Source: Fontisphaera persica (lineage in GTDB: Bacteria; Verrucomicrobiota; Verrucomicrobiia; Limisphaerales; Fontisphaeraceae). From it: DNA of 64,000 nt. Below are positions 45,535 to 48,549 of the stretch, one piece after another. The stretch lies in NCBI RefSeq assembly GCF_024832785.1, contig NZ_CP116615.1, forward strand, positions 3,038,001-3,102,000. The letters run 5' to 3'. The position numbers and the translations under genes were made by a program. Each line of letters opens with the position of its first letter. The first letter of the stretch is position 1. The notes under the pieces are model-generated. The model worked only from the letters and a program-made list of their open reading frames with translations, had not been told where the DNA came from and did no database searches.

Positions 45535-48500
45535 ATGAGCAAACGAGCATTGGTGGCAGCGTGCCTTGGGGCGGTGGGAAGCCTCATGCTGGCGGGAGCA
45601 TTGGCTGCCGGGGCCGCGGAGGCCTCCGCCGCCGCGCGCCCGCTGGTGCTGAAGCGCGGATGGATGGCCCTTCCCGGAGACCGCGGCGCACAAACCGCCC
45701 TCCAGTTCTGCCGCGATACCGAATTGTTCTGTTACGTGCAACTCCCCACCGCCGCCGAGGTGGCCGCCGCCCGCCAAAACGCCGCCCGCGCGGGTTTGTA
45801 TGGCGTCCGCATTTTCATCGAGGAGGGGCCGTTCAGCCAATTGCACCTCGCCGACCATCTGGCGGATGTCACCCTGCCCATCGGCGCGGCCCTGCAAATG
45901 CCTGAAGCCGAGGCCCTGCGCGTCACCCGCCCGGGCGGTGAGGTCATCCTGGGCGCTAAAAAGCTGGTGAAACCGTTTCCGCCCGGCGTGGATGACTGGA
46001 CGCATCCCTATCATTTGCCGGACAACAATCCCGTTTCCCGCGACCAGGTGGCCCGCGGACCTTATTTAACCCAATTCCTGGCGGACCCGCGTTACGCCCC
46101 CCTGCCGCAGGTGGCGGTGGCCGCCGCCGGCCGCATTTTCAAGGCCTTTGGCCACATTGCCTTCAAGGAACGCGAGGAACCCTGGCTGAACACCCTGGCC
46201 GCCTTCAATGGTTACAACGGGACGTTGCTCTGGCGGCGCGAGATTGCCCCGGCCCTCATGGTGCACCGCAGCACGCTCATCGCCACCGCGGACCGCCTCT
46301 ACTTCGGGGATGACCGTTCCTGCAAAATCTTCGACGCCGCCACCGGCGAGCTGGAAGATGAAATTGCGCCGCCGGAAGACGTGGCCGGCGGCACCTTCTG
46401 GAAATGGATGGCGCTGGAGGAGGGGGTGCTGTATGCCATGATTGGCCCGCAGGAAAAACGCGACCCGGTCATCCGCGCCCGCAGCACCGGCCATGGCTGG
46501 CCCTGGAATCCGCTCTCCCCCGGCTTCAATCAGCCGGAAAACCCGTGGGGCTACGGCCACACGCTGCTGGCCCTAGACCCTCAGAGCAAGCGCATCCTGT
46601 GGCGGCACGTGGAAGAAAAACCGATGGACGGCCGGGCCATCTGCCTCAAGAACGGACGCCTGTTTTTATTTAGCCACGGCCAATATCTGGTGGCGCTGGA
46701 GGCGGCCACCGGCAAGGTCATCTGGCGCAAAACTCCCGAAAACGCGCCAGAGCTATTTCAGGCGCTTGGACCATACTTGGGGCGCCAGGACTGGCGCACC
46801 AACTGGCGCACCACGGCCCTGATGCGCGCCGGCGACCACGCCCTCTATTTTGCCGGCCCGGCCATGGCACGGTTGGCAGCGGTTTCCACCGATGACGGCC
46901 GGCTGCTCTGGACCCAACCTTACGATAATTATCAACTGGTGCTCTATGACAACGCCCTTTACGGCATCAGCGGTGAAATTGACAAGGAAATCAGCCGCAA
47001 GTTTGACCCGCTGACCGGCCGCGTGCTGGCGGAAATCGCCATCAACCGCCGGGCCTGCACCCGTCCCACCGCCACGCCCGATGCCATCTTTTTCCGGGCC
47101 GGTGAAGGCTCTGTGCGCCTGGACACCATGCAGGACCGCCCCCAGTTGGTCTCCCCCATGCGCCCCAACTGCCATGACGGCGTGACCGTGGCCCACGGAT
47201 TGCTCTACTGGTGGCCCTCGGTGTGCGATTGCAACCTGAGCCTCTACGGCATCACCTGCCTGGGACCGGCCGGCAATTTCGATTTCAACCAGCCCGCCCG
47301 CGAGAGTGAGCGCCTCCAGCGCTTGCGGGCGGCGGGCAATCCTCGGCCCCTCCTGGTCGGCAGCAATGACTGGCCGGTATTCCGCGCCAACGCCCAAGGC
47401 TCGGTGCGCACCTCCGCCGCCATTCAGGAAAAAGCGCGACTGCTCTGGGAATTTGCCCTCCCGCCGCAGGTCACCCCCACCGCGCCAACCGCCGTGGAAG
47501 ACTTTGTTTTTGTCGGGGGCTCCGATGGCATGGTGCGGGCCGTCCGCGCGGCCACGGGACAAAATGCCTGGACCGCCTTTACCGGTGGCGAGCTGCGCCT
47601 GCCGCCCACCCTGGCGGAGGGGCGGGCTCTGGCGGGCAGCGGCGATGGCTGGGTGTATTGCTGGCGCGCCCGCGATGGCGCCCTCCTTTGGAAATTCCGC
47701 GCCGCGCCCGTGGAGCGCCGCATTCCGGTGTATGGCCGGCTGCTCTCCACCTGGCCCGCCGCCAGCGGTGTGCTGGCGCAGGACGGGGTGGCGTACGTGG
47801 CCGCCGGACTGGCCAATTACGACGGCACGCATGTTTATGCCCTGAACGTGGCCGATGGCAGCCTGCGCTGGCAAAACAACACCTCCGGCCATTTGGACCG
47901 CGAAAGCCGCACCGGAGTGGGCGTGCAGGGGCATCTGCTGCTTCTGGGCCAGCGCCTCTATATGGCCGGAGGCAACGCCGTTTCCCCGGCCGTCTATGAT
48001 TTGGCCACCGGCCGCTGCCTCAATGAGGAGGACTTCACCCAAAAACAAAAACGCGGCAACCTCCTGGGCTCTTTCAGCCCGCGCGGCTGGGAACTTTACC
48101 TCGTGGGAAATGACGTGCGCGTTGCCGGCAAACCGTATTATGCGCATCCCCAATGGCCGGTGTTTGATGACTGGGTGTTGAAGAAGACGTTGTACGTCAC
48201 CGGGCAAGGGTGGGATCTCGCCTGGGCCAATAACAGCAAATTGATGTGCTTTGATGACCTGGGGCCAAACCGCCCCGCCTTTCAGCGCACCCACTGGGGC
48301 AATACTGAAATAAAACAACCCGCCCCGCGATGGAGTCATCCTACCCCCGATGGACGGGCCATTGCCGTAGGAGTCAATGCGGTGGTGGCCGCCACCGGTA
48401 GCGAGCTTTGCGCCTGGAGTTTGCAGGATGGCTCGCTGTTGTGGAAACATGCGCTCCCCGCCCCTGCCGTGCCATGGGGGCTGGCTATTACGCGCGACGG

Positions 48501-48549
48501 CCGCGTCCTGGTCACCCTCGAAAACGGCCGCCTGCTATGCTTCGGGTAA
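45535..48549 (+). CDS. Exported PQQ-type beta-propeller protein with decayed methyltransferase-like N-terminus
   Basis: 1004 residues. A signal peptide (about 1-28) leads to residues ~45-145, which resemble the end of a class I methyltransferase (ADVTLPIGAAL then EALRVTRPGGEVILG at 127-140), without a glycine-rich SAM-binding loop. The linker VDDWTHPYHLPDNNPVSRD (152-170) opens a PQQ/BamB-like propeller (about 170-1000) built of blades such as LLALDPQSKRILWRH, LVALEAATGKVIWRK and VYALNVADGSLRWQN. The DWTH-Y--P-NN linker is known from Planctomycetota and Verrucomicrobiota proteins. No PQQ-dehydrogenase catalytic residues are obvious. Location periplasmic or outer surface; role unknown. Confidence 0.82.
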   Translation: MSKRALVAACLGAVGSLMLAGALAAGAAEASAAARPLVLKRGWMALPGDRGAQTALQFCRDTELFCYVQLPTAAEVAAARQNAARAGLYGVRIFIEEGPFSQLHLADHLADVTLPIGAALQMPEAEALRVTRPGGEVILGAKKLVKPFPPGVDDWTHPYHLPDNNPVSRDQVARGPYLTQFLADPRYAPLPQVAVAAAGRIFKAFGHIAFKEREEPWLNTLAAFNGYNGTLLWRREIAPALMVHRSTLIATADRLYFGDDRSCKIFDAATGELEDEIAPPEDVAGGTFWKWMALEEGVLYAMIGPQEKRDPVIRARSTGHGWPWNPLSPGFNQPENPWGYGHTLLALDPQSKRILWRHVEEKPMDGRAICLKNGRLFLFSHGQYLVALEAATGKVIWRKTPENAPELFQALGPYLGRQDWRTNWRTTALMRAGDHALYFAGPAMARLAAVSTDDGRLLWTQPYDNYQLVLYDNALYGISGEIDKEISRKFDPLTGRVLAEIAINRRACTRPTATPDAIFFRAGEGSVRLDTMQDRPQLVSPMRPNCHDGVTVAHGLLYWWPSVCDCNLSLYGITCLGPAGNFDFNQPARESERLQRLRAAGNPRPLLVGSNDWPVFRANAQGSVRTSAAIQEKARLLWEFALPPQVTPTAPTAVEDFVFVGGSDGMVRAVRAATGQNAWTAFTGGELRLPPTLAEGRALAGSGDGWVYCWRARDGALLWKFRAAPVERRIPVYGRLLSTWPAASGVLAQDGVAYVAAGLANYDGTHVYALNVADGSLRWQNNTSGHLDRESRTGVGVQGHLLLLGQRLYMAGGNAVSPAVYDLATGRCLNEEDFTQKQKRGNLLGSFSPRGWELYLVGNDVRVAGKPYYAHPQWPVFDDWVLKKTLYVTGQGWDLAWANNSKLMCFDDLGPNRPAFQRTHWGNTEIKQPAPRWSHPTPDGRAIAVGVNAVVAATGSELCAWSLQDGSLLWKHALPAPAVPWGLAITRDGRVLVTLENGRLLCFG

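What the first reader, a model, noticed from the sequence alone, without database searches (positions are those of the whole stretch)
45535..46050. PQQ propeller fused to the remnant of a methyltransferase
Residues 45-145 look like the second half of a class I methyltransferase (EALRVTRPGGEVILG is the post-motif I 'LRPGG' strand) but lack the SAM-binding glycine loop; an export signal precedes it, so SAM would not be available. The DWTHPYHLPDNNPVSRD linker is known from planctomycetal and verrucomicrobial PQQ proteins that still carry a longer methyltransferase-like domain. This looks like a cytoplasmic fold that was exported and became structural.
Basis: partly seen in the sequence, partly recalled or inferred. 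Interest (0 to 1): 0.5.

Follow-up and report, generated by a model that had tools for sequence, protein, structure and literature searches.

The report
Exported propeller with SAM-less methyltransferase fold
A secreted bacterial protein built from two beta-propellers begins with a domain that has the fold of a cytoplasmic methyltransferase but has lost the parts that bind the methyl donor, and this disarmed form is kept in relatives from several phyla, which suggests that it now serves as a building block.

Summary
The ORF at 45535-48549 (1004 aa) has an export signal, a methyltransferase-derived domain (residues ~40-146) and two beta-propellers. The domain is not only the second half of a methyltransferase: profile alignment and predicted structure show strands b1 to b5, including the place of motif I. 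Its profile matches the genome's own class I methyltransferases (hhalign 97%, E 1e-10; Rossmann controls under 1%, column shuffles 0.1-0.3%); its model matches solved ones (VIA Z 15.4). The SAM determinants are gone: GxGxG in 0 of 76 relatives, b2 acid in 0 of 76, against 16 of 17 free-standing rows, the 17th probably a wrong-frame ORF. The disarmed form is one clade, mostly Planctomycetota and Verrucomicrobiota, under purifying selection (dN/dS about 0.15, one pair). Sister fusions, most with export-like signals, keep parts of the SAM site, so export alone does not explain the loss. Where propeller 1 was found, the domain precedes it. Best reading, inferred: a scaffold for propeller 1, where invariant polar residues and five cysteines cluster. 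The 'linker' DWTHPYHLPDNN opens propeller 1. Nothing shows PQQ use.

The parts
45535..45627 (+). export signal of the Sec type (residues 1-31; end by eye)
   Evidence: hydrophobic stretch after MSKR; residues 1-34 have pLDDT under 50; a hydrophobic stretch precedes the domain in 74 of 80 testable type A rows; dN 0.90 between window and L009 (31 codons), i.e. sequence not kept
45652..45972 (+). methyltransferase-derived Rossmann domain (residues 40-146), SAM determinants lost
   Evidence: hhalign 97% E 1e-10 with controls under 1%; model b1-aA-b2-aB-b3-b4-aD-b5, ten-residue means 92-98 over model residues 11-110; Foldseek and VIA matches
45670..45690 (+). position of motif I (residues 46-52, LPGDRGA): first glycine kept, the acid and the other two glycines replaced
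   Evidence: hhalign alignment; column counts
45739..45744 (+). end of strand b2 (Q69 L70): the acid that holds the SAM ribose in class I enzymes is absent; Q69 is kept in 73 of 76
   Evidence: the MAFFT alignment puts the acid at 70, the hhalign alignment at 69; no acid at either in 76 of 76
45919..45939 (+).
   Evidence: R129 in 75 of 76, P133 in 76 of 76
45991..47370 (+). beta-propeller 1 (residues 153-612), opening with DDWTHPYHLPDNNPVSRD; holds most invariant polar residues and C263, C508, C546, C564, C566
   Evidence: VIA match of residues 153-580 to Rv3035, Z 27.0, 336 aligned, rmsd 3.0; conservation
47371..48546 (+). beta-propeller 2 (residues 613-1004), opening with NDWPVFRANAQGS
   Evidence: Pfam PQQ_2 best stretch 636-830; VIA match of residues 607-1004 to YxaL, Z 29.2, 313 aligned, rmsd 3.2

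Best explanation
The protein is an exported two-propeller protein whose N-terminal domain descends from a class I SAM-dependent methyltransferase. SHOWN by computation: the fold (b1 to b5), the absence of GxGxG and of the b2 acid in all 76 aligned rows, one clade among the rows sampled, purifying selection, and a place before propeller 1. INFERRED: the domain no longer binds SAM or methylates; it acts as a folded brace or cap on propeller 1, and the working site (binding or catalysis, perhaps with a metal or disulfide at the invariant cysteines) lies in propeller 1. Also inferred: the methyltransferase was fused to propellers while its SAM site was still largely intact, and the site then eroded more than once, completely in this clade.
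For: Fold. Loss: motif I acid 0 of 76, GxGxG 0 of 76, b2 acid 0 of 76 in this clade, against 15, 16 and 16 of 17 free-standing rows. Intermediates: b2 acid 8 of 19 (type B) and 12 of 14 (type C), strict GxGxG 6 of 19 and 3 of 14. Tree rooted on free-standing enzymes: this clade 98/92 and 100/95 without the motif I columns. What stays invariant in the domain is fold-keeping (G42, R92, D111, P133, nearly R129), not SAM contacts. Selection: window against L009 dN 0.117, dS 0.779 over 115 codons. Place: the domain match precedes the propeller 1 match in 84 of 84 type A rows and in 30 of 30 other fusions in which BLAST found propeller 1, in both domain orders; the 84 rows are 82 genes, as the window (L001, L173) and one other gene (L010, L054) are in twice. 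Of 86 ORFs matching the query over 600 bits, the 2 without the domain are cut by a contig start (L115) and by a run of N (L104). Propeller 1 carries 48 polar or aromatic columns at least 97% identical in 462 positions, the domain 4 in 115. In the full-length model the domain and the junction have pLDDT about 93-97 and pTM is 0.90.
Against: No contact analysis: the tools gave no coordinates or PAE, so packing of the domain on propeller 1 is read from pLDDT, pTM and gene order only. Q69 (73 of 76), D49 (69 of 76, E in 6) and C52 (51 of 76) are fixed replacements inside the old SAM pocket, which fits a new ligand as well as a new structural need. The domain has the highest dN of the three folded regions (0.117 against 0.037 and 0.104), which fits loose constraint. 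Selection rests on one usable pair; in the second pair (L038) dS is 1.97, near saturation. 13 of 76 type A rows still have two of the three glycines. The order of branching is weak: trees have 116-125 columns, the A+B branch has 95/54, and type B is one group in 14% or 83% of bootstrap trees.
Confidence: 0.6

Rival explanations
1. The domain still binds a ligand, not SAM, in the old cofactor pocket and works as a sensor or regulatory module of the propeller protein.
For: Fixed substitutions at or beside old SAM-contact positions: Q69 in 73 of 76, D49 in 69 of 76, C52 in 51 of 76. Kept in rows from at least two well-sampled phyla.
Against: Only 4 polar columns of the domain are at least 97% conserved (R92, D111, E126, R129), and D111 and R129 are also usual in the free-standing rows (15 and 16 of 17). 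No pocket analysis was possible without coordinates.
Confidence: 0.2
2. The domain is a passive relic that has no role of its own and has merely not been lost.
For: Highest dN of the three folded regions and higher mean column entropy than propeller 1 (1.66 against 1.16; residues 836-1004 have 1.84).
Against: Present in 84 of the 86 ORFs over 600 bits, the other two being cut; dN/dS about 0.15; fixed substitutions. But these rows were found by similarity to the whole protein, and rows that match only after residue 45 were left out of the alignment, so domain-less relatives further away were not looked for.
Confidence: 0.15
3. A Rossmann-like domain of other origin that converged on methyltransferase-like motifs.
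For: The single-sequence match is weak (E 0.21).
Against: Profile match to methyltransferases 97%, to short-chain dehydrogenases 0.3%, to response regulators 0.8%; the 50 structural matches listed in each are methyltransferases by title or, as far as I recall, of that fold (SpnF, RdmB, YcgJ, YjhP, Rv2258c, MccD and a few entries titled by locus only); intermediates with motifs in related architectures.
Confidence: 0.03

Closest known systems
Class I SAM-dependent methyltransferases (Pfam Methyltransf_11 / Methyltransf_25)
   Same: b1-aA-b2-aB-b3-b4-aD-b5 order, RVLRPGG motif, profile and structure match
   Different: No motif I acid, no GxGxG, no b2 acid, only one short strand after b5 in the model, export signal, fused to propellers
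Methyltransferase-propeller fusions that keep SAM motifs in part or whole (types B and C here; e.g. L064, L013, L176, L049, L050)
   Same: Related domain before a related propeller 1 where that was found; export-like signal in 14 of 19 (B) and 10 of 11 testable (C)
   Different: Keep parts of GxGxG and the b2 acid; type C has the order propeller 2 - domain - propeller 1, i.e. permuted domain order
BamB / YxaL / Rv3035-type propellers (Pfam PQQ_2)
   Same: Fold of the propellers
   Different: NCBIfam BamB model 73.8 bits against a cut-off of 285.2; two propellers plus the extra domain
PQQ-dependent dehydrogenases
   Same: Weak similarity of propeller repeats
   Different: TIGR03075 32.3 bits against a cut-off of 480.05, TIGR03074 16.9 against 832.65

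Membership tests
Class I SAM-dependent methyltransferase | Rossmann-like core b1 to b5 with alternating helices | tested here: met
   Order of elements in the model, matches, profile match
Class I SAM-dependent methyltransferase | Motif I E/DxGxGxG | tested here: not met
   GxGxG 0 of 76, acid 0 of 76; two of three glycines in 13 of 76
Class I SAM-dependent methyltransferase | Acid at the end of b2 that holds the SAM ribose | tested here: not met
   0 of 76 at positions 69 and 70; 16 of 17 free-standing rows
Class I SAM-dependent methyltransferase | C-terminal b6/b7 pair of the sheet | tested here: inconclusive
   Only one short strand (142-145) after b5 in the models; by a motif script the distance from the RPGG proline to the propeller opening is 20 (median of 81 of 84 type A rows) against 38 (median of 14 type C rows); some of the script's B and C rows are misread
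Class I SAM-dependent methyltransferase | SAM binding and methyl transfer | not testable with these tools
   needs the protein
PQQ-dependent dehydrogenase | Score over the curated family cut-off | tested here: not met
   TIGR03075 32.3 of 480.05 bits, TIGR03074 16.9 of 832.65
PQQ-dependent dehydrogenase | PQQ made by the organism (PqqC, PqqE) | tested here: inconclusive
   PqqE best 79.4 of 381.35 bits; PqqC no match, but none of the 14 control genomes rang either
BamB | Score over the curated family cut-off | tested here: not met
   TIGR03300 73.8 of 285.2 bits
Type A methyltransferase-derived domain + two propellers (defined here) | Signal, SAM-less domain, propeller 1, propeller 2 in this order | tested here: met
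   MT-P1-P2 in 83 of 84 rows and MT-P1 in 1; hydrophobic stretch in 74 of 80 testable rows

The most novel reading that the evidence does not exclude
Planctomycetota and Verrucomicrobiota carry a whole extracytoplasmic class I methyltransferase world: exported propeller fusions and neighbouring lipoprotein methyltransferases with intact SAM motifs, of which the window's protein is the fully disarmed, perhaps regulatory partner. If the intact ones work, SAM or a SAM-like donor must reach the outside of the cytoplasmic membrane in these cells.
Probability: 0.08. Interest if true: 0.8.

Novelty: new variant of a known kind. Interest (0 to 1): 0.42.

Why it matters
It is a clear case of a cofactor enzyme domain turned into a non-SAM module outside the cytoplasm, with intermediate stages still present in relatives (more, fewer and no SAM determinants in related architectures). 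That makes the order of events testable. The export-like signals of sister domains and of lipoprotein-like neighbours with intact SAM motifs raise the question whether SAM is available outside the cytoplasm in these bacteria. It also warns that annotation as 'PQQ' or 'BamB' says little about what this family does.

Tried and rejected
Rejected: that only the second half of a methyltransferase remains (searches show b1-aA-b2 as well). Rejected: 'linker' (it opens propeller 1). Rejected: kinship to the two other Rossmann-like families tried as controls; other families were not tried. A PQQ enzyme is not supported; PQQ synthesis in the genome stayed inconclusive. Plasmid relatives: no match at E 1e-30. 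Window neighbours (CinA-like, ferredoxin-like, glycoside hydrolase-like; names from reading the translations, recalled) lie on both strands and gave no operon. In relatives the gene is often followed by a CxC protein, an FtsX permease and an ABC ATPase (18 of 82 loci for the CxC protein, many loci cut short), which I could not turn into a function. Ten literature searches were answered: seven listed no paper; the other three I saw as search listings with the starts of abstracts only, and none of those is about this domain. No paper was opened. The library is open-access papers only, so this does not show that the fusion is undescribed.

Limits of the counts. One search used 15 of 21 methyltransferase loci, 6 of 12 dehydrogenase loci and 10 of 20 response-regulator loci (those whose central ORF fitted a typed motif); one of the 15 (L119) looks like a wrong-frame ORF, and the type C alignment held one wrongly cut row (L018); both were left in. 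That filter chose methyltransferases by a glycine motif, so the motif count of the 8 own-genome rows among the 17 free-standing rows is biased upward; the 9 others came in through the type A profile and all 9 have GxGxG, but four more partial matches (L197-L200) were left out. A1 holds the window and 75 of 76 relatives (L089 left out for an insert); A2 holds 59 of those 76 rows. Tree 1 uses 29 of 84 type A rows; L002 (same gene as L008), L179, L187 and L197-L200 were left out; tree 2 leaves out L119, L124, L186, L191 (long branches) and L172 (not in A1). Type labels rest on BLAST order where found; L093 (contig cut) and L190 (no propeller found by BLAST) were placed by eye and by the tree. Many loci from the genome search are short, so a missing propeller 2 there means little. 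The glycine state changes at least 7 times (all three) or 12 times (two or more) on tree 2; direction is inferred from the outgroup.

Full report
What is there. The ORF at 45535-48549 on the plus strand codes for 1004 residues. Pfam at E <= 1 finds only propeller families in the whole protein (PQQ_2, 120.2 bits) and, in residues 25-172 given alone, a weak Methyltransf_11 match (E 0.21). Relatives: one scan of the species genomes returned 80 loci (the cap; 96 were confirmed), most of them matching from within the first 45 residues to residue 1004, best segments 42-65% identical. Of the 78 type A rows from that scan, 47 are labelled Planctomycetota, 19 Verrucomicrobiota, 2 each Armatimonadota and Bacteroidota, 1 each Lentisphaerota, Kiritimatiellota, Latescibacterota, Sumerlaeota and Acidobacteriota, and 3 have no label. 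Most records are metagenome bins, so rare labels may be binning errors.

The N-terminal domain. In the alignment of 78 N-terminal stretches the region after the signal is sharply conserved; in A1 (76 rows) mean column identity is 59%. Profile-profile comparison gives 97.0% and E 1e-10 against own-genome class I methyltransferases, 96.5% against five stand-alone methyltransferases that neighbour the gene in relatives, 99.3% and 99.6% against the sister fusions B and C, and 0.3%, 0.8% and 0.1-0.3% for short-chain dehydrogenases, response regulators and five column shuffles. The match starts at domain column 11, so it includes strand b1 and the motif I loop. The AlphaFold model of residues 32-175 (only type A rows in its alignment, so that intact relatives could not steer it) has b1 10-14, aA 19-30, b2 32-39, aB 42-54, b3 62-66, b4 79-82, aD 86-90 and 93-99, b5 100-108 and a short last strand 111-114; ten-residue means of pLDDT are 92-98 for residues 11-110. 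Foldseek finds 445 PDB chains at E <= 0.001, best 3dlc (E 1.3e-8); the rows listed are methyltransferases by title or, as I recall, of that fold, such as SpnF. VIA gives Z 15.4 over 114 residues at 1.9 A for 2o57, and Z >= 8 for 907 of 1000 chains.

Loss of the SAM site. Counts at aligned positions, type A / B / C / free-standing: motif I acid 0 of 76 / 0 of 19 / 1 of 14 / 15 of 17; full GxGxG 0 of 76 / 6 of 19 / 3 of 14 / 16 of 17; two or more of the three glycines 13 of 76 / 11 of 19 / 11 of 14 / 16 of 17; b2 acid 0 of 76 / 8 of 19 / 12 of 14 / 16 of 17; acid after b3 16 of 76 / 9 of 19 / 6 of 14 / 13 of 17. The one free-standing row without motifs (L119) is probably a wrong-frame ORF. So the motif I acid was already rare in B and C, and the loss in A is the end of a gradient rather than a single step. 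Type A has fixed replacements instead: D at 49 (69 of 76; E 6), C at 52 (51 of 76), Q at 69 (73 of 76). D111, R129 and P133, which belong to the fold, are kept (76, 75 and 76 of 76). That SAM contacts lie at these positions is established knowledge of the family, recalled.

History. Type A forms one clade among the sampled rows (98/92; 100/95 when motif I columns are left out). Type C is one group (96/76; 97/94). Type B is not one group in the first tree (14% of bootstrap trees) and is in the second (88/77, 83%). Rooted on free-standing enzymes, C lies outside A plus B with 95/54. The glycine state changes at least 7 times (all three glycines) or 12 times (two or more) on the second tree. The simplest reading is fusion with a working or nearly working site followed by repeated loss; the trees have few columns and the root depends on the outgroup.

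Architecture. The domain match precedes the propeller 1 match in 84 of 84 type A rows (MT-P1-P2 in 83, MT-P1 in 1; 82 genes, as two are in twice) and in all 30 other rows in which BLAST found propeller 1 (15 MT-P1, 9 P2-MT-P1, 6 MT-P1-P2); in 29 of these 30 propeller 1 starts at most 87 residues after the domain match, in L185 178. Five further rows are P2-MT with no propeller 1 found, and 14 show no propeller (9 free-standing enzymes of the trees, L190, and L197-L200). Type C thus has the same parts in permuted order, and MT plus propeller 1 is the constant unit. Of 86 ORFs that match the query over 600 bits, two lack the domain: L115 starts at the contig end, and in L104 a run of N stands where the 5' part should be. 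Propeller 1 matches Rv3035 (Z 27.0, residues 153-580) and propeller 2 matches YxaL (Z 29.2) and BamB (Z about 25). The full-length model has pLDDT 90.4 and pTM 0.90.

Selection. Window against the same-genus relative L009: domain dN 0.117, dS 0.779 (115 codons); propeller 1 0.037, 0.818; propeller 2 0.104, 1.050; signal 0.896, 2.085 (31 codons). Against L038 dS is 1.3-2.0 and too near saturation to use: domain dN 0.485, dS 1.965. So the domain is under purifying selection, much less than propeller 1 and somewhat less than propeller 2. Columns at least 97% identical with polar or aromatic residues number 4 in the domain, 48 in propeller 1 and 17 in residues 613-835; C263, C508, C546, C564 and C566 are the same in 59 of 59. 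This points to propeller 1 as the working part.

Export. By a simple hydropathy rule a hydrophobic stretch precedes the domain in 74 of 80 testable type A rows and 14 of 19 type B rows, and propeller 2 in 10 of 11 testable type C rows; some failures still look like signals by eye (L064). So most fusions with partly or wholly intact SAM motifs look exported as well. Of 9 free-standing rows tested by the same rule 5 pass and 4 (L192, L195, L196, L201) do not; the five are the stand-alone methyltransferases 38-250 bases downstream of type A genes (L059, L063, L071, L076, L110), which keep motif I and the b2 acid and start with a lipobox-like signal by eye.

Verdict. The stretch is a methyltransferase-derived domain without SAM determinants, conserved and probably structural. 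Its origin is close to certain (about 0.95); its present role as brace of propeller 1 is the best reading (0.6) but untested.

Noticed in passing
L059:5502-6260, L063:3384-4136, L071:8178-8900, L076:8020-8784, L110:8322-9218: Stand-alone methyltransferases directly downstream of type A genes with SAM motifs intact and lipoprotein-type signals (lipobox such as LLLCGAGC, by eye): predicted exported methyltransferases.
   Followed up: partly
L106:7987-10988, L049:8357-11156, L055:8364-11403, L090:8011-11172: Recurrent order type A gene - CxC-containing membrane-anchored protein without a Pfam match over cut-off (18 of 82 loci) - FtsX permease - ABC ATPase. The window's genome has a relative of the c11 protein (L040:2940-4079, another CxC protein beside FtsX) elsewhere (C1:4499566-4500594, 36% identity).
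   Followed up: partly
L049, L050, L115, L116, L176: Permuted domain order: propeller 2 - methyltransferase domain - propeller 1, against methyltransferase domain - propeller 1 - propeller 2 in the window's family.
   Followed up: partly
window 46321-47232: Five cysteines of propeller 1 (C263, C508, C546, and C564-D-C566) are the same in 59 of 59 rows; sister fusions have a similar C...CxC pattern by eye. Possible metal site or disulfides.
   Followed up: no
G000:C1:2737089-2739431: The window's genome also has a type C fusion (L002/L008) whose motif I region reads YLGLADPD, without the second and third glycine.
   Followed up: partly
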